In this document: in pieces, positions 958 through 25,079 of the stretch
How positions within the stretch are numbered: position 1 is the stretch's first letter
How the letters are laid out: each line of letters begins with the position of its first letter
IMG/VR virus record: IMGVR_UViG_3300030333_008834
Span: 295 to 25,661 of that record
Strand: one strand, 5' to 3'
DNA: 25,367 nt
Source of the DNA: a virus
The notes under the pieces: generated by a model
Told to the model about the DNA's origin: nothing
Database searches by the model: none
The model's input: only the letters and a program-made list of their open reading frames with translations
Made by a program: the position numbers and the translations under genes

Positions 958-1005
958 ATGAAAACAAAAGATCTTTTAAGAGAGTGGAAGTCTTTTTTAA
1001 ACGAA
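958..1005 (+). other. Capsid-targeting-like leader peptide, copy 1
   Basis: Codes for MKTKDLLREWKSFLNE, with predicted cleavage after E16 (LNE|T). It is nearly identical to the leader at 3343 and similar to that at 17550. Assignment as a capsid-targeting sequence is by analogy with T4 internal proteins and Alt. Confidence 0.5.
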
Positions 1006-3327
1006 ACAAGTGTTGTTTCTTTGTCACAGCTTAGAAAAGAAATGCTTGACAACGAAGCTTATACAGACGACGATGTAAAATCTTTAGAAGAGTTCTGGAG
1101 AAATCCATCACATCAATTTCTTTCAAAATATTCTCAGGTTATTAGAAACAGCATAACTAGTCAAGAACCTATCTTGCACGCTTTAGAAGATATAAAGCTA
1201 CATTATCATAAGTTATACCAGATGGCTTCGCTTGAGACAAAAAGAGCAATAGCTTTAGGTGATATATCTGTTGAAGACTTGCGAAAACAACTAGACAAAA
1301 ATTCTAAATTTAATTCTAGGGAAGTTAGGCAACAGTGTCAGTATCAAAACGAAAGACCTGTTGTTGGCAGCTATCAAGACTTCGATGTAGTATACAGTAA
1401 CTCTGACTGGATTGTAATTGAACCAAAGACTATTAAAGGATCAATTGCATGGGCGCATGGCAAGCCAGATGGTAGCGAAGAAAAAGTCACAAGTAGAAGA
1501 GTTGGATGGTGTACTGGAGTCAACACAGCAAACAACATGTTCCCAAACTATGCTGGAAACCTTCATATGTTTTATGTTATAAACGCAAATTATGAAAATG
1601 ACACATCTAGTAATAGAAAGTTATGTTTATCTTTTGTAATAGTAGACGGCGAAGTAAAACTTGAAAACAAAGGTGGCTCAACAGTTAATGCAAGAAACCA
1701 AGCAATATCTGAAGGTATGTTAAATAGAATAAAAAGGGAAAATTTTTATAAAGTCATACTTCAAAAGCTTAAAGGAAGAAAAGAAACATCTTTCAGCGAA
1801 GTCTACAAAAAGGCTTCAATCTCTCAAATCTTAAGATCGCTTGCTCAAATGAAGTCACAAAATATCGACAAAGGTGTAATTGAATCTGAAGTAAAGAGTT
1901 ATATAACACATACAGACGATCCTGAGGTTTTGAGTTATTTTTATGAAAATCCAGTTGGTGACGTTGTTAAAATAGAAACATTAAACAGATTATGCAAGAA
2001 AGACTCTGGCAACAACTTTGAGGAAGTAATAGAAAAAGTTTTAAACAGTAACAACATGAAAGACATGAGTTATGTAGCCACTAATTCATATAATCAGTCA
2101 TTAATAGATTATTTTTTAAATCATAACGATATAAGTGTAAAAGCACTTATAATAGACAATATAAACGTAATGAAGGATAAGGAACATTTTAAAAATAGTA
2201 CTCTATTAAAAATTATAAAAGAATTACTTGCAGGCGACTTAAGTGACAGCAAAAAATCTTTTGCGCTGGTTAAATGTTTATCTTACATTAATAGAGGAAC
2301 TCTAGATGTGAGTAACTTATCTTACAAAAATTTAAAAGACATTTTGCTAAACATTGGAAAAAATTTAGGATCCGAATTCGGGCCAAACGTTCGTGTATTT
2401 AACATGTTTGAAGTAATAGAGAAAATAAAGTCGTCCTATAGAGAAGATTTTTTAACAGACATCTATTTGTGGTTTTGTTTTATTAGAGATAATTTGTTAA
2501 AAGGCGTAAACGTTAAAATTTATTTTAAATCAATACTAGAAGAAGACAATCTTCCCAAAACAATAATTAACGAACTTGTAGAGTTGTGTGTAAAGTTAAT
2601 TAGTAACATAAAAGAAGAATCTAAAAAAAATGGAGGTATAGAAGAATTAGTTGCATCTATTATTTGTAATAGAGAAATTACGAATAGCCAATATTCTCAA
2701 ATAATAGATGCAGTATCAAAATCACAACATGATGATTCTACTGTTGCACTTTTTTCATTTGCTGTCAAAAAAAGAAATAATCAACTATCTTTAGATCTGT
2801 TCAATATCTCAAATGAGAAAGCAAAAAAAAGGATGTCTGTAATAGGAGAAGATGTACTAGGTGAAGACTGTCCCAAGGAAATCTTAGACTTTATAAAACA
2901 AAGTCCTATGACAACTAGTCGACTTTTTAGTAGCAAGACTTCTAATTTAGACTTTCAGCAATTTAAGCAAAAAGCTTTAGAAGTAGACTTTACAGATATG
3001 GCCAAAGACCTAGAAAATATCGAAGCAATAGACAACATAGATGAATATGATTACTTTTTATATCAATTCCCAGAAACATTTGCATGTGAAGATAATCCGG
3101 TCGAAATGTATAATCTGCTTAAGTCAAAAGGTATTGATATAAAATTTGATGGAAGTATTTTTAATAAAATGTTTGAAGACATAATGGGATGGGGTTACGA
3201 ATCTCTTGATCAAATGTTTAACTATCCGGAGCCTGGACATTACCATTTTGCCGACTTATTTCAAAAAAGATCTACTCAAAACGAATCAGTAATAAGACAA
3301 TATATAAGATCTGTTTTAAACAGTTAA
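958..3327 (+). CDS. Large protein with capsid-targeting-like leader, WCT-type core and helical tail
   Basis: 789 residues. Residues 1-16 (MKTKDLLREWKSFLNE) form a basic amphipathic leader ending in L-N-E, which matches the (L/I)xE cleavage rule of T4-type prohead proteases. Residues about 20-120 are mostly helical. Residues about 120-247 form a conserved core with RQQCQYQN, DWIVIEPKTIKGSIAWAHGK, GWCTG (C185), NLHMFY, KLCLS and KGGSTV. The remaining 500 or so residues look like degenerate alpha-helical repeats, ending in IRQYIRSVLNS. The start is supported by AAGGATTACA-ATG and by the identical leader on the next gene. The core is homologous to the downstream gene at 3343. I do not recognise the core family, and no ADP-ribosyltransferase, kinase or nuclease motif is evident. 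The opposite strand from its neighbours and the upstream TATAAATA fit late expression. Packaging into the head and injection is inference. Confidence 0.85.
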   Translation: MKTKDLLREWKSFLNETSVVSLSQLRKEMLDNEAYTDDDVKSLEEFWRNPSHQFLSKYSQVIRNSITSQEPILHALEDIKLHYHKLYQMASLETKRAIALGDISVEDLRKQLDKNSKFNSREVRQQCQYQNERPVVGSYQDFDVVYSNSDWIVIEPKTIKGSIAWAHGKPDGSEEKVTSRRVGWCTGVNTANNMFPNYAGNLHMFYVINANYENDTSSNRKLCLSFVIVDGEVKLENKGGSTVNARNQAISEGMLNRIKRENFYKVILQKLKGRKETSFSEVYKKASISQILRSLAQMKSQNIDKGVIESEVKSYITHTDDPEVLSYFYENPVGDVVKIETLNRLCKKDSGNNFEEVIEKVLNSNNMKDMSYVATNSYNQSLIDYFLNHNDISVKALIIDNINVMKDKEHFKNSTLLKIIKELLAGDLSDSKKSFALVKCLSYINRGTLDVSNLSYKNLKDILLNIGKNLGSEFGPNVRVFNMFEVIEKIKSSYREDFLTDIYLWFCFIRDNLLKGVNVKIYFKSILEEDNLPKTIINELVELCVKLISNIKEESKKNGGIEELVASIICNREITNSQYSQIIDAVSKSQHDDSTVALFSFAVKKRNNQLSLDLFNISNEKAKKRMSVIGEDVLGEDCPKEILDFIKQSPMTTSRLFSSKTSNLDFQQFKQKALEVDFTDMAKDLENIEAIDNIDEYDYFLYQFPETFACEDNPVEMYNLLKSKGIDIKFDGSIFNKMFEDIMGWGYESLDQMFNYPEPGHYHFADLFQKRSTQNESVIRQYIRSVLNS
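1321..1515 (+). repeat. Duplicated core segment, copy 1
   Basis: Codes for 65 residues (122-186) that match residues 120-184 of the next gene at 60 of 65 positions. The DNA differences are mostly synonymous third-position changes. The homology extends more weakly on both sides, so this is the best-conserved part of a tandem gene duplication. Confidence 0.85.
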
Positions 3328-3342
3328 AGAAAGAATACAATT

Positions 3343-3390
3343 ATGAAAACAAAAGAAATTTTAAGAGAATGGAAGTCTTTTCTAAACGAA
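3343..3390 (+). other. Capsid-targeting-like leader peptide, copy 2
   Basis: Codes for MKTKEILREWKSFLNE with predicted cleavage after E16 (LNE|S). Only two conservative substitutions separate it from copy 1. Confidence 0.5.
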
Positions 3391-4899
3391 AGCCGTATTA
3401 TTCCGAGATCTGAATTGGTCGAAGTAATGTCAAACGTCGACGCATATGATCAAAATGATATTGATAAATTTAAAAATGCATGGGAAAAAAATCAATTTTA
3501 CTCAAAATATACACATGTTTTTTTAAACGATCTACAAAAAGGTGAACCTTTAAGTCATATTTTATCAACAATTAATTTGCACTTTAACAAAGTCTATCAA
3601 TCTGCTGGACCACAAACTAAATCTAAAATCGCTAGTGGTGAATACACTTGTGACGATCTAAGAAAAGAGTTAGACCAAAGATCTAGTTTTAACAAAAGTG
3701 AAGTCAGGCAACAGTGTCAGTATCAAAATGGAAGGCCTGTTGTTGGCAGCTATCAAGATTTTGACGTTGTATATAGTAACTCTGATTGGATTGTAATTGA
3801 GCCAAAGACTATCCAGGGATCGATTGCATGGGCACATGGAAAACCAGACGGTAGTGAGGAAAAAGATGAGAACAGAAGAGTTGGTTGGTGCACAGCAACA
3901 ACATCAGGAAACAACATGTTCCCAAACTATGCAGGAAATTTGCATATGTTTTACTTTATCAGTGGTGACTACGAAACAAACAGTTCAGCAAATAGAAGAC
4001 TTTGCTTGTCATACACGGTAAATAACGGTAATGCGGTCTTAGAAGAAAAAGGAGGATCAACTGTTGATGCTGATAATGCTTTCTTGCAAATAGAAAAAAT
4101 TAACAGTATGATTGATAAAAGCATACTAGACTTAATTGAAGATAGAGTACAAAACAGAAAAGAAACATCATTTACAGAAATATACTCTAGAGCATCAGTA
4201 GGTCAAATCATACGTCAAGTAAGACAAATGAAAGAGCAAGGAATTAATCAAGAAACAATTAACAACGAAATTTCAAGCTATTTAAAACATACAAACAATA
4301 AAGAAGTAATTGATTATATTATAAGTGAGTACAAAGATCAAGAAGCATATATAGCGCCATTAGAAGACGAGGGTCCTATCCCGTGTCGTATTTTTGAAAG
4401 AGACGATATAGAAGAGCTAGATAAAAAAACAAATATAATAAATCAACTTATTTCTAGTTATGAGAATCATAAAGGGTTAGGTCAGGTTTTCACAACTATG
4501 ATCTTTGTCACAACTGAAGAAGGGAAAGATATCTTTGACAAAAGCATTAAAAACAAAATGATGCAAATTGCAAAGAGTACAAACGCAAGCAACATTACTA
4601 ATGCTCTTGTAGAACTTGTTTTAGTAAATCATTGGCACGATTTTTTAGACTTTAACGACATTGCAGATTTAATTAGTATCAATGACGATGATGTTTCTCG
4701 AGCAATACTTCAGACATTCCCCATTTCAGAATATCCAGGTCACCCTAGATATAAAGAGATATTAAAAACAATAAAAACCAAAATATATCCTGCAGCTGAT
4801 GATTATTTTAAGCGTAAAATTCTCCAGAATCACAGCTACGTTTTTCACACTTTTGAAAATACGACTTTAAAAAGATATATTAAAGAGATTTTATCTTAA
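3343..4899 (+). CDS. Paralogue of the 958-3327 protein, capsid-targeting-like leader plus WCT-type core
   Basis: 518 residues, starting 15 nt after the previous gene. The leader MKTKEILREWKSFLNE (residues 1-16) differs from its neighbour's at only two positions and again ends in L-N-E. The core, residues about 118-247, carries RQQCQYQNGRPVVG, DWIVIEPKTIQGSIAWAHGK, GWCTA and KGGSTV. Homology to the neighbour continues to about residue 320 (RKETSFTEIY...). After that the helical C-terminal part is different and about 300 residues shorter. The last residues (LKRYIKEILS) resemble the neighbour's C-terminus, so both ends and the core are kept while the middle diverged. The stop overlaps the convergent minus-strand gene by 4 bp. 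Function unknown; a packaged, injected effector or internal head protein is a working hypothesis. Confidence 0.85.
   Translation: MKTKEILREWKSFLNESRIIPRSELVEVMSNVDAYDQNDIDKFKNAWEKNQFYSKYTHVFLNDLQKGEPLSHILSTINLHFNKVYQSAGPQTKSKIASGEYTCDDLRKELDQRSSFNKSEVRQQCQYQNGRPVVGSYQDFDVVYSNSDWIVIEPKTIQGSIAWAHGKPDGSEEKDENRRVGWCTATTSGNNMFPNYAGNLHMFYFISGDYETNSSANRRLCLSYTVNNGNAVLEEKGGSTVDADNAFLQIEKINSMIDKSILDLIEDRVQNRKETSFTEIYSRASVGQIIRQVRQMKEQGINQETINNEISSYLKHTNNKEVIDYIISEYKDQEAYIAPLEDEGPIPCRIFERDDIEELDKKTNIINQLISSYENHKGLGQVFTTMIFVTTEEGKDIFDKSIKNKMMQIAKSTNASNITNALVELVLVNHWHDFLDFNDIADLISINDDDVSRAILQTFPISEYPGHPRYKEILKTIKTKIYPAADDYFKRKILQNHSYVFHTFENTTLKRYIKEILS
3700..3894 (+). repeat. Duplicated core segment, copy 2
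   Basis: Counterpart of 1321-1515. The same 65-residue block has five amino-acid differences, three of them clustered just before RRVGWCT. Confidence 0.85.
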
Positions 4900-5114
4900 C
4901 TCAAGATATTAATTGTAATATCTTTTGAGTCATCAAAATCAACTGTTTCAATTCTGTTATTAAAAACATAAGTTACCAATCCGGGATCAGTCTTAAAATA
5001 CATATCTTTTATTATTCTGAGAACAAGACAGTTTTCTTTAATCACATTGCCACATAAGTATATGTTGAAAAGATCACCTTTAGCTAACATTCTTCCATCT
5101 TTAGAATTCTGCAT
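4896..5114 (-). CDS. Small hypothetical protein, SH3-like barrel candidate
   Basis: 72 residues. The ATG at 5114 lies about 10 nt after GGAGA in the 3' end of the preceding gene, and the frames overlap by 14 bp. The pattern GDLFNIYL...NCLVLRII...GLVTYVF...ETVDF suggests a small all-beta barrel. It resembles the 73-residue protein at 6272-6493 and the 89-residue protein at 8304-8573 (shared shape N-C/V-L-hydrophobic-K/R-I followed by a second strand). Its end overlaps the convergent plus-strand gene by 4 bp. Function unknown. Confidence 0.65.
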   Translation of the reverse strand: MQNSKDGRMLAKGDLFNIYLCGNVIKENCLVLRIIKDMYFKTDPGLVTYVFNNRIETVDFDDSKDITINILS

Positions 5115-6321
5115 ATATTTTTGGATCTCCGCTTCGTATTGTTATATTTGAATTATTAGTCAACATAAGATTACATATATTATTTGGCGGAATATCATAA
5201 AACTTTACAATGTTGAATAAATCATCATAAACAAAGTCTAAGTTTTCTCTTAATTTTGTTATGCCGTTAAATATATGCAGATCATTAGACGATAAAACAG
5301 GACCAATTCTACAAACAATCTCTGAAATTATTGCAGAAAAAGCTGTTAATACTTGATTTGCAGTAATAGAAAATGAATATTCATTTGGATTTTGATTAAT
5401 TGCATTACCACTTATTTGATTTAAAACGCTTGTGTCTGCATTGTCAACTGCTAAAGAATACAAAGTAATACAAGGACTATTTGAAGTAGAATAATAGCAA
5501 TCATTTACATCTCTATTTCTCAAGACATTTCTAACATAATTGATTGAGTTGCTCCCACCTTCATTTGGACTGCCATCTGAAACCATTATAATGTAGTAAG
5601 CTTCATTGTCAGATCTGTCAATTAGCTCTTTTGACTTTTGTAAGGGTCTAACAAAATTTGTACCTCCGTCAGGATTACTGTTGTTAACAATAGAAAGCAC
5701 TCTTTGATCGTGGTTTGAACCTTTTGATATTTCCGTAAAGTTGATAACATCAGAGTTGTAAAGAATAACAGAGTAATCTAGGTCATAGTTTTGTGCAACA
5801 AAAGTTTGTACTGCTGACTTTAGCTGTGCAATTCTATTTCCTTGCATAGATCCTGAGAAGTCTAAAAGTAAAACAACAGCAGCATCAATTTTTTGAACGT
5901 CGTGATTTTCTTCTTCTATTTCTACAGAAGATGAATCTGTAGCTTCTACACCATTTACAATATAGTCTGAAGTTATGGTGAACTTTCTTTTGCAAGGTGT
6001 AGTACTACAATCTAGACCTCTATCTATGCAACTAAATTGTGATTGATTATTTACAAAATCCAGATTACAACCTAGTCCTTCAATATTATTACAAAACCTT
6101 TCAGCGTCATTTGTATATATAATATCCATGCCTATAGACATAGCACATGTGTCTAGTAGCTGTCTTTCATCTGACAGCTGTTTATAACCGCCACCAATTT
6201 GTATTGTTAGGAAAGCTAATCCTGCTAAGACTGCAGATATCATGCAGACAATAAGTGCTGCAAATCCTTTTTTATTTTGATTTTTTTGCGTATACACAAT
6301 AATCTTCGCTTTGAAAGTCAC
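5101..6321 (-). CDS. TadG/TadE-like membrane protein with von Willebrand A domain
   Basis: 406 residues from the GTG at 6321; a GTG at 6297 (residue 9) is also possible and reduces the overlap with the upstream gene. Residues about 19-41 (KKGFAALIVCMISAVLAGLAF) form one membrane helix, followed by YKQLSDERQLLDTCAMSIGMD. This is the layout of TadE/TadG-type Flp pilus proteins. A von Willebrand A domain spans about 145-340 with a complete metal-ion-dependent adhesion site: D154-x-S156-x-S158 (LLDFSGSM), T221 (DGGTNF) and D249 (MVSDGSPN). Several cysteines (77, 85, 98, 105, 110) between helix and domain could form disulfides if exported. In bacteria such proteins act in pilus assembly or surface adhesion. 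A phage copy could be a membrane or surface protein made in infection; that role is inference. Confidence 0.75.
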   Translation of the reverse strand: MTFKAKIIVYTQKNQNKKGFAALIVCMISAVLAGLAFLTIQIGGGYKQLSDERQLLDTCAMSIGMDIIYTNDAERFCNNIEGLGCNLDFVNNQSQFSCIDRGLDCSTTPCKRKFTITSDYIVNGVEATDSSSVEIEEENHDVQKIDAAVVLLLDFSGSMQGNRIAQLKSAVQTFVAQNYDLDYSVILYNSDVINFTEISKGSNHDQRVLSIVNNSNPDGGTNFVRPLQKSKELIDRSDNEAYYIIMVSDGSPNEGGSNSINYVRNVLRNRDVNDCYYSTSNSPCITLYSLAVDNADTSVLNQISGNAINQNPNEYSFSITANQVLTAFSAIISEIVCRIGPVLSSNDLHIFNGITKLRENLDFVYDDLFNIVKFYDIPPNNICNLMLTNNSNITIRSGDPKIYAEF

Positions 6322-11373: not shown

Positions 11374-11407
11374 TTAATGTTCCTTTCAATATATTTCTTA
11401 TATTGAA

Positions 11408-17549: not shown

Positions 17550-17606
17550 ATGAAAAGAAAAGATTTTAAGATTATCGTGGAAAATTGGAATAAATATCTA
17601 AACGAG
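17550..17606 (+). other. Capsid-targeting-like leader peptide, copy 3
   Basis: Codes for MKRKDFKIIVENWNKYLNE, with predicted cleavage after E19 (LNE|S). It shares MKxK, a central W and (F/Y)LNE with the other two leaders but is otherwise diverged. Confidence 0.45.
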
Positions 17607-24157: not shown

Positions 24158-24964
24158 TCAGAGATCGTCAAGACTCGCAAATGCATCATCTAAGCTCTTG
24201 TACTTTGAAGAGATTGCATCTGGTGAGTTTGCATCAGTAGTTTGTGAAGATGAACTGCTTTGTCCACCAAAGTTACTTGAGCCTCCACGTGTAGTTTCTG
24301 GCTTTTCATCATCACCATTGAGCCAAGCATTAATAATTCGCTCTAGTTCATCGTAAGATTTGAGATCAAAGAGATCATTTACATCTGGGATGTTGTCAAG
24401 CCATTGCTTTGATTGAGTATTGTTCTCTGAAAGAGGTGATGACTTGCCTCGAGGCCGTACATCTGTCGTAGCATATTGTTGACCTGGACTCTTTGTACAT
24501 GTAATGCGGACGTCACGACCATCATGTGGATCTGTAATGTCACCGTAATCCTCATCAATCATGTAGTTAAGAAGAGTTTGGTAAACGTTCTTTCCAAATG
24601 CCCAAATTCGTACGCCGCGATCTTCCTCACCACGAACAACAACAGGAGCATAACATCGCATCTTTGGGTAAAGCTTCTTTGCTAGCTCGTAAGACTCCTT
24701 GCTTGCTTCGTCACGGAGCTTTGTAATGAGCTCTTGAAACGGATCAGGCTTGTTAAACTGGTAAGGAGCAAGAAGACCACGATTGTTTCCAATGTTGTAG
24801 TAGAACATAAGCTCCTTGAAAGGTTGTCCATCATTGTCAGGATAAGCAAGTAGACGAACAGTTGTCTCTGTTCCCTCTTCGGGACGCCACATGATGTTCT
24901 TCTTTGAGTTCTGACCAGAGAGTTGACCAAGCTTCTTGCGGATTGCATCTAGATCGATTGCCAT
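24158..24964 (-). CDS. gp32-like: Single-stranded DNA-binding protein, T4 gp32-like
   Basis: 268 residues (T4 gp32 has 301). The order fits gp32: a short basic N-terminal part (LDAIRKKLGQL), an OB-fold core about 25-200 (VRLLAYPDNDGQPFKELMFYYNIG, RCYAPVVVRGEEDRGVRIWAFGKNVY), a Gly/Ser/Gln-rich linker and an acidic tail (SLDDAFASLDDL) that recruits partners. The T4 zinc ligands (H-C-C-C) are absent; only C104 and C156 remain, so it is probably zinc-free. Codon use looks more GC-rich than its neighbours, as expected for an abundant protein. Start: CAAAGGAAAAATCA-ATG. The leader (24965-25079) holds a promoter and a predicted pseudoknot, suggesting self-regulated translation. Confidence 0.88.
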   Translation of the reverse strand: MAIDLDAIRKKLGQLSGQNSKKNIMWRPEEGTETTVRLLAYPDNDGQPFKELMFYYNIGNNRGLLAPYQFNKPDPFQELITKLRDEASKESYELAKKLYPKMRCYAPVVVRGEEDRGVRIWAFGKNVYQTLLNYMIDEDYGDITDPHDGRDVRITCTKSPGQQYATTDVRPRGKSSPLSENNTQSKQWLDNIPDVNDLFDLKSYDELERIINAWLNGDDEKPETTRGGSSNFGGQSSSSSQTTDANSPDAISSKYKSLDDAFASLDDL

Positions 24965-25005
24965 AATTGATTTTTCCTTTGTATTGTTTTAAATGTTTAA
25001 TTTTT

Positions 25006-25051
25006 TAATTGGTTAATTTTTAATGTTGATATCGACCAATTACATCGATAT
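25006..25051 (-). promoter_or_regulatory. Predicted H-type RNA pseudoknot in the ssb leader (translational operator)
   Basis: Minus-strand RNA. Stem 1 is AUAUCGA (25051-25045) with UCGAUAU (25035-25029), 7 bp. Stem 2 is UAAUUGG (25042-25036) with CCAAUUA (25012-25006), 7 bp. Loop 1 is 2 nt (UG) and the last loop about 15 nt of A/U-rich sequence. About 40 nt of A/U-rich, unstructured RNA with UUAAA repeats follows, up to AAAGGA and the AUG. This is the plan of the T4 gene 32 operator. Stem 1 overlaps the -10 box of the promoter here, so only read-through transcripts would carry it whole. Confidence 0.5.
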
Positions 25052-25078
25052 TATAGTCTATAAATTTTAAATTTACAC
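25050..25078 (-). promoter_or_regulatory. Promoter GTGTAAA-N16-TATAAT upstream of ssb
   Basis: Minus strand: GTGTAAA at 25078-25072, 16-nt spacer, TATAAT at 25055-25050. It starts right after the stop of the 81-residue gene. The expected start site is near 25043, giving a leader of about 80 nt. Confidence 0.6.
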
Positions 25079-25079
25079 A

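What the first reader, a model, noticed from the sequence alone, without database searches (positions are those of the whole stretch)
24965..25079. gp32-type pseudoknot operator in the ssb leader
Two interleaved 7-bp helices (AUAUCGA/UCGAUAU and UAAUUGG/CCAAUUA) with a 2-nt first loop can form a classic H-type pseudoknot. It is followed by about 40 nt of A/U-rich unstructured RNA with UUAAA-like repeats and then the ribosome site. T4 gene 32 uses the same plan: gp32 nucleates at a pseudoknot and spreads over the start site to repress its own translation. The primary sequence is unlike T4's as far as I can tell, so this would be a diverged or convergent case.
Basis: partly seen in the sequence, partly recalled or inferred. 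Interest (0 to 1): 0.75.

Follow-up and report, generated by a model that had tools for sequence, protein, structure and literature searches.

The report
Conserved RNA knot before phage ssb
In a group of uncultured, mostly marine phages the messenger RNA in front of the single-stranded-DNA-binding protein gene can fold into a small knot laid out like the one with which phage T4 shuts off its own gene 32, and related phages keep the knot while changing its letters, although here its first strand lies inside a promoter.

Summary
The pseudoknot is real and is conserved. It is the only tight 7+7-bp H-type pseudoknot on either strand of the window. It ends 41 nt before the start codon, against 39 nt in T4. 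The gene it precedes encodes a gp32-family SSB (Pfam PF08804; Foldseek top hits RB69 and T4 gp32 cores). In relatives, stem 1 changes sequence but keeps pairing (0/500 and 0/1000 permutations reach the observed value). Stem 2 has three two-sided compensations. The tract after it carries UUAAA units about twice as often as dinucleotide shuffles, as in T4.

First, a promoter (TGTAAA-N16-TATAAT) abuts stem 1; its predicted start, the 7th nt after TATAAT, means RNA from it would lack the 5' strand of stem 1, so the knot could form only in read-through RNA. Second, stem 1 belongs essentially to one clade, whereas stem 2 is more widespread.

Best reading: a T4-like, SSB-nucleated translational operator acting on upstream-initiated mRNA. 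SSB binding and repression are inferred, not shown. It shares no RNA sequence with T4: a new variant of a known kind.

The parts
24158..24964 (-). ssb: gp32-family single-stranded-DNA-binding protein, 268 aa
   Evidence: Pfam PF08804 gp32 E 3.8e-10; PHROG 1192/224 SSB; AF2 model (mean pLDDT 54.5) matches RB69/T4 gp32 cores, Foldseek E about 2e-7
25045..25051 (-). 5' strand of stem 1 (AUAUCGA); overlaps the last two bases of the -10 box and the -6..-2 region
   Evidence: sequence; covarying pairing with 25029-25035
25043..25044 (-). loop 1 (UG); 25043 is also the predicted +1 of the local promoter
25036..25042 (-). 5' strand of stem 2 (UAAUUGG)
25029..25035 (-). 3' strand of stem 1 (UCGAUAU)
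25013..25028 (-). loop 3, 16 nt, A/U-rich
   Evidence: S2 loop length varies widely among relatives
25006..25012 (-). 3' strand of stem 2 (CCAAUUA); ends 41 nt before AUG
24981..25005 (-). unstructured A/U-rich tract with UUAAA units
   Evidence: fold 0.0 kcal/mol; UUAAA enriched in relatives, 33 vs 16.8 in dinucleotide shuffles, 0/1000
24975..24980 (-). Shine-Dalgarno-like AAAGGA
   Evidence: sequence
25050..25077 (-). promoter TGTAAA-N16-TATAAT; predicted transcription start about 25043
   Evidence: motif 8x in window vs 0.13 expected; kept in ssb and thyX leaders of relatives; C/A initiator at the 6th/7th nt after TATAAT in 19/21 distinct spacers

Best explanation
The ssb leader carries an H-type RNA pseudoknot followed by a UUAAA-rich unstructured tract and the ribosome-binding site. 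Most likely it is an autogenous translational operator: surplus SSB nucleates at the knot and spreads cooperatively over the A/U-rich tract to block ribosomes, as gp32 does in T4. Shown here: the structure can form, it is kept by compensatory change, and its layout equals T4's. Inferred: SSB binding and repression. Because the 5' strand of stem 1 lies in the -10 and -6..-2 region of a local promoter, the complete knot should form only in mRNA read through from upstream genes. Promoter-initiated mRNA should begin at (A/G)UAAUUGG or (A/G)CAAUUGG and keep only the stem-2 hairpin at its 5' end.
For: Knot present and unique in the window. S1 pairing in 33 distinct leaders: mean -2.0 vs -0.45 kcal/mol when 3' arms are permuted, z -9.3, 0/500; within the S1-bearing clade alone -2.87 vs -0.78, 0/1000. 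On 13 aligned leaders 94.5% of cells pair, four S1 pairs have two-sided changes, and sliding the partner by 1-3 columns drops pairing to at most 43%. S2: three pairs with two-sided changes (UA->CG in L022, AU->UA in L010/L020, UA->AU in L151), 1/500 shuffles. U.G and G.U intermediates in S1 (L012, L046, L019) favour pairing at the RNA level. The register of S1 shifts by 1-2 nt between relatives, which fits pairing better than a fixed protein operator. 3' end of the knot to AUG: median 37 nt over 51 leaders, 41 in the window, 39 in T4. UUAAA units present in 26/27 distinct tracts. gp32 fold. A pattern scan of 2.9 million viral contigs found the promoter-plus-stem-2 motif only before ssb genes. 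Upstream gene co-directional in all leaders examined, stop codon close to the promoter. T4 mechanism: PMC3014915, PMC535899.
Against: No binding or expression data. S1 is absent from about 13 of 33 distinct leaders, which keep only S2. The conserved promoter predicts a start inside the knot, so the main transcript may never contain S1. S2 is nearly invariant in sequence, so its covariation rests on three changes. Related sequences inflate permutation statistics, and replication template switching can create covarying arms without selection (PMC8794818, found, abstract only). The two closest cultured relatives (Microcystis phage Mel-JY01, Flavobacterium phage immuto) show no knot better than shuffles.
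Confidence: 0.57

Rival explanations
1. 5'-end mRNA element. The functional unit is the stem-2 hairpin at the extreme 5' end of the promoter-initiated transcript; it stabilises the mRNA against 5'-end-dependent decay or marks it. S1 is a minor addition in one clade.
For: S2 is kept in nearly all leaders with or without S1. The predicted start (n7) places S2 within 1-2 nt of the 5' end. The TATAAT-to-AAUUGG distance is almost always 8 nt.
Against: It does not explain S1 covariation (0/500, 0/1000), the UUAAA enrichment or the roughly constant distance to AUG.
Confidence: 0.2
2. DNA-level operator. The inverted repeat straddling the start site is a repressor or activator site at the promoter.
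For: The arms flank the predicted +1 exactly, between -10 and about +15.
Against: Arm sequence and spacing change between close relatives, and U.G/G.U pairs occur in S1. S2 arm spacing also varies widely.
Confidence: 0.08
3. The knot is an operator for another repressor (a RegA-like protein, a host factor) or a ribosome standby/enhancer element, not for the SSB itself.
For: Only structure and position are shown; no SSB-RNA data exist.
Against: The gp32-fold protein, UUAAA tract and 40-nt spacing together match the one known precedent.
Confidence: 0.1
4. Mutational artefact: AT-rich sequence plus template switching keeps homogenising an inverted repeat with no function.
For: Template switching is known to create and maintain hairpins (PMC8794818). 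A non-conserved inverted repeat also follows the thyX promoter of the window and its nearest relative.
Against: S1 is present in most members of one clade, occurs together with S2 and the tract, and includes wobble pairs and register shifts; S2 compensations are independent of S1.
Confidence: 0.05

Closest known systems
Phage T4/T2/RB69 gene 32 leader pseudoknot operator (McPheeters 1988; Shamoo 1993; Holland 1999; PMC535899; PMC3014915)
   Same: gp32-fold SSB gene downstream; H-type knot with short L1 and adjacent stems; knot ends about 40 nt before AUG (39 in T4, 41 here); UUAAA-rich unstructured tract over the SD.
   Different: No RNA sequence similarity found; stem 1 and L3 longer (L3 16 nt vs about 6-7 nt); 5' strand of S1 embedded in a conserved promoter; S1 limited mostly to one clade; S1 sequence varies freely while S2 AAUUGG/CCAAUU is nearly fixed; binding untested.
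E. coli rpsO (S15) pseudoknot operator (mentioned in PMC3014915; details recalled)
   Same: Autogenous translational control through a leader pseudoknot.
   Different: Unrelated protein and RNA; that knot lies at the ribosome site, not about 40 nt upstream followed by a cooperative-binding tract.
T4 gene 43 (DNA polymerase) hairpin operator (PMC3014915)
   Same: Replication protein represses its own mRNA from a leader structure about 40 nt upstream.
   Different: Hairpin, no pseudoknot; different protein family.

Membership tests
T4-type gene 32 pseudoknot operator | Lies in the leader of a gp32-family SSB gene | tested here: met
   PF08804 E 3.8e-10; Foldseek to RB69/T4 gp32 cores about 2e-7
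T4-type gene 32 pseudoknot operator | H-type pseudoknot with L1 of 1-3 nt and adjacent stems | tested here: met
   conserved with compensatory changes in relatives
T4-type gene 32 pseudoknot operator | Knot ends about 40 nt upstream of AUG | tested here: met
   window 41, T4 39; median 37 in 51 leaders
T4-type gene 32 pseudoknot operator | Unstructured A/U-rich tract with UUAAA/UAAA units over the ribosome site | tested here: met
   0.0 kcal/mol; 33 UUAAA vs 16.8 in shuffles
T4-type gene 32 pseudoknot operator | Recognisable RNA sequence homology with T4/T2/RB69 | tested here: not met
   blastn of the leader against 50,697 phage records: no T4-like hit among those listed; no Rfam match
T4-type gene 32 pseudoknot operator | The whole knot is present in the mature mRNA | tested here: inconclusive
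   Local promoter predicts a start inside the knot; read-through from the co-directional upstream gene is plausible but not shown
T4-type gene 32 pseudoknot operator | The SSB binds the knot and represses its own translation | not testable with these tools
   needs binding and translation assays
T4-type gene 32 pseudoknot operator | RNase E cut just 5' of the knot (-71 in T4) | not testable with these tools
   described for T4 in PMC3014915

The most novel reading that the evidence does not exclude
Promoter choice decides whether ssb mRNA can be autoregulated. The -10/start region doubles as the first strand of the pseudoknot, so RNA from the local promoter escapes SSB-nucleated repression while read-through RNA, perhaps made at another stage of infection, is subject to it.
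Probability: 0.3. Interest if true: 0.75.

Novelty: new variant of a known kind. Interest (0 to 1): 0.6.

Why it matters
[quoted passage not shown] Here is a separate, broad family of phages with its own covarying knot in the same place before a gp32-fold SSB too diverged to be matched to gp32 by sequence in the PDB. It supplies a natural set of knot variants for testing how a sequence-nonspecific ssDNA-binding protein recognises one RNA. It also raises the question of how a promoter and an RNA operator can share bases.

Tried and rejected
Exact S1 hairpin of the window in IMG/VR: no match. Rfam at gathering and permissive thresholds: nothing. blastn of the leader against cultured phages: chance hits only. 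phmmer/hmmsearch of the SSB against the PDB: only chance hits, none to gp32; the fold comparison found gp32. Knot in Mel-JY01 and immuto leaders: not above shuffles. The scan also missed a good S1 in L048 because of an A.A mismatch, so counts of S1 are conservative. The idea that upstream gene content predicts S1 was checked and only loosely holds. The thyX inverted repeat as a second instance of the same device was rejected: it is not conserved beyond the nearest relative. The AF2 model has low confidence (mean pLDDT 54.5), so only the fold match is used.

Full report
What is there. The window is most of a 25.7-kb viral contig. The gene in question (24964-24158, minus strand) encodes a 268-aa SSB: Pfam gp32 E 3.8e-10, PHROG SSB families. 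An AF2 model from an 11-sequence alignment has low confidence (mean pLDDT 54.5), but its six best PDB matches are all RB69/T4 gp32 (Foldseek E about 2e-7 to 5e-6). Sequence searches of the PDB found no gp32. The neighbours downstream are a UvsX/RecA-like recombinase, a 5'-3' exonuclease and a DnaB-like helicase.

Observation. S1 AUAUCGA/UCGAUAU (25051-25045 / 25035-25029), L1 UG, S2 UAAUUGG/CCAAUUA (25042-25036 / 25012-25006), L3 16 nt. It is the only 7+7-bp tight H-type knot on either strand of the window. A hydrogen-bond-score scan gives 32 vs 17.7 +/- 6.6 in shuffles, 0/100, and recovers the T4 gene 32 knot as positive control, ending 39 nt from AUG against 41 here.

Comparative evidence. 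163 relatives were found in IMG/VR in the first scan and the best 80 kept; three more scans added further loci, many of them the same contigs. Leaders were aligned by the motif TATAAT-8 nt-(A/G)ATTGG. S1 arms change wholesale but stay complementary: AUAUCGA/UCGAUAU, GUAGA/UCUAC, GUUGA/UCGAC, GAUCA/UGAUC, GUUA/UAAC, GUCU/AGAC, UGGC/GCCA. With 3' arms permuted among 33 distinct leaders, mean hairpin energy falls from -2.0 to -0.45 kcal/mol (z -9.3, 0/500). Within the S1-bearing clade alone it falls from -2.87 to -0.78 (0/1000). On a 13-leader alignment 94.5% of cells pair, four S1 pairs show two-sided changes, and slid partners pair in at most 43% of cells. S2 is nearly invariant but shows three pairs with two-sided changes (1/500 shuffles), and its best stem is longer than in shuffled downstream sequence (7.5 vs 5.7 pairs, none of 500 shuffles as high).

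Distribution. A maximum-likelihood tree of 50 SSBs puts 23 of the 26 S1-bearing rows in one supported clade of 25 (95/94; two members, L018 and L022, without S1). A separate hairpin occurs in L059/L061/L064. The S1 labels were assigned by me and by eye, some with 3-5 bp only. Outside that clade most leaders keep the promoter and S2 but not S1. A pattern scan of the whole IMG/VR collection for TATAAT-N8-RATTGG-N(9-38)-CCAATTA returned 88 stretches; in the listing of the new loci every match with the upstream TGTAAA element lies before an ssb gene, and no match without it does.

Position and tract. The knot's 3' end lies a median 37 nt from AUG in 51 leaders. The tract between knot and SD is unstructured (0.0 kcal/mol in the window) and has UUAAA units in 26 of 27 distinct tracts, 33 in all vs 16.8 in dinucleotide shuffles (0/1000), 4.6 per 100 nt against 1.8 in thyX leaders of related phages. 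These are the features described for T4.

The promoter twist. TGTAAA-N15-18-TATAAT occurs 8 times in the window against 0.13 expected (some of these lie inside genes). It is kept in nearly all S1+ and S1- ssb leaders and before thyX in relatives. In 21 distinct 8-nt spacers the 6th base is C in 19 and the 7th is A in 19 and G in 2, the expected -1/+1 initiator at the expected distance from a -10 box. RNA from this promoter therefore probably starts at about 25043 and lacks the 5' strand of S1. Since S1 covaries and contains U.G/G.U pairs, it is probably made as RNA at least part of the time, which requires read-through from upstream. The upstream gene is co-directional with its stop codon close to the promoter in the leaders examined. 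Read-through itself has not been shown.

Mechanism, with status. Shown by sequence: both helices can form, are kept by compensation, and sit in a T4-like layout before a gp32-fold SSB. Inferred: the knot forms in read-through mRNA; SSB nucleates there and spreads over the UUAAA tract; promoter RNA escapes or is handled through S2 alone. Rivals are a 5'-end stability hairpin (S2), a DNA operator, another RNA-binding regulator, and template-switch homogenisation (PMC8794818 abstract).

Membership. All sequence-level features of the T4-type operator that I could test are met except RNA sequence homology. SSB binding and repression could not be tested, and presence of the whole knot in mRNA is inconclusive. 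I therefore describe it as working like the T4 operator and as a new, probably independent variant, not as a proven member.

Limits. Loci include near-identical contigs; permutations do not remove shared ancestry. MAFFT alignments of short A/U-rich leaders are only safe in the anchored part. No cultured host or transcript data were available. The literature library holds only open-licence papers, so prior reports of gp32 leader knots in other phages may have been missed.

Noticed in passing
window 25077, 17535, 16016, 14269, 11435 (minus strand): A phage-wide promoter class TGTAAA-N15-18-TATAAT, 8 hits vs 0.13 expected; kept before ssb and thyX in relatives.
   Followed up: partly
window 11385-11407: Inverted repeat TTCAATATA-AGAAA-TATATTGAA directly after the thyX-like gene's promoter and touching its SD; present only in the window and nearest relative L337.
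   Followed up: yes
L059, L061, L064 ssb leaders: Two mutually exclusive helices: CAGUCGCC/GGUGGCUG and GGUGGCUG/CAGUUACC (changed consistently in L064); could be a switch between read-through and promoter RNA. Seen by eye only.
   Followed up: no
L070-L079 ssb leaders: More distant relatives lack the knot but have a strong hairpin at a similar place (e.g. GUGGUUAAUACCAC) followed by a conserved AAUUUGACCAUUAAA-like stretch before the SD.
   Followed up: no
upstream of ssb in relatives: The gene just upstream of ssb is swapped between a ~490-aa ORF and a small basic ORF ending SVQWYLK-like, only loosely tracking S1.
   Followed up: partly
window 958-4899 (+): Two paralogous ORFs (789 and 518 aa) starting MKTK(D/E)(L/I)LREWKSFLNE; the ORF at 17550 has a similar N-terminus.
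   Followed up: no
window 5101-6321 (-): 406-aa ORF with an apparent N-terminal membrane segment and a VWA-like motif (DFSGSMQG), unusual next to phage nucleotide-metabolism genes.
   Followed up: no
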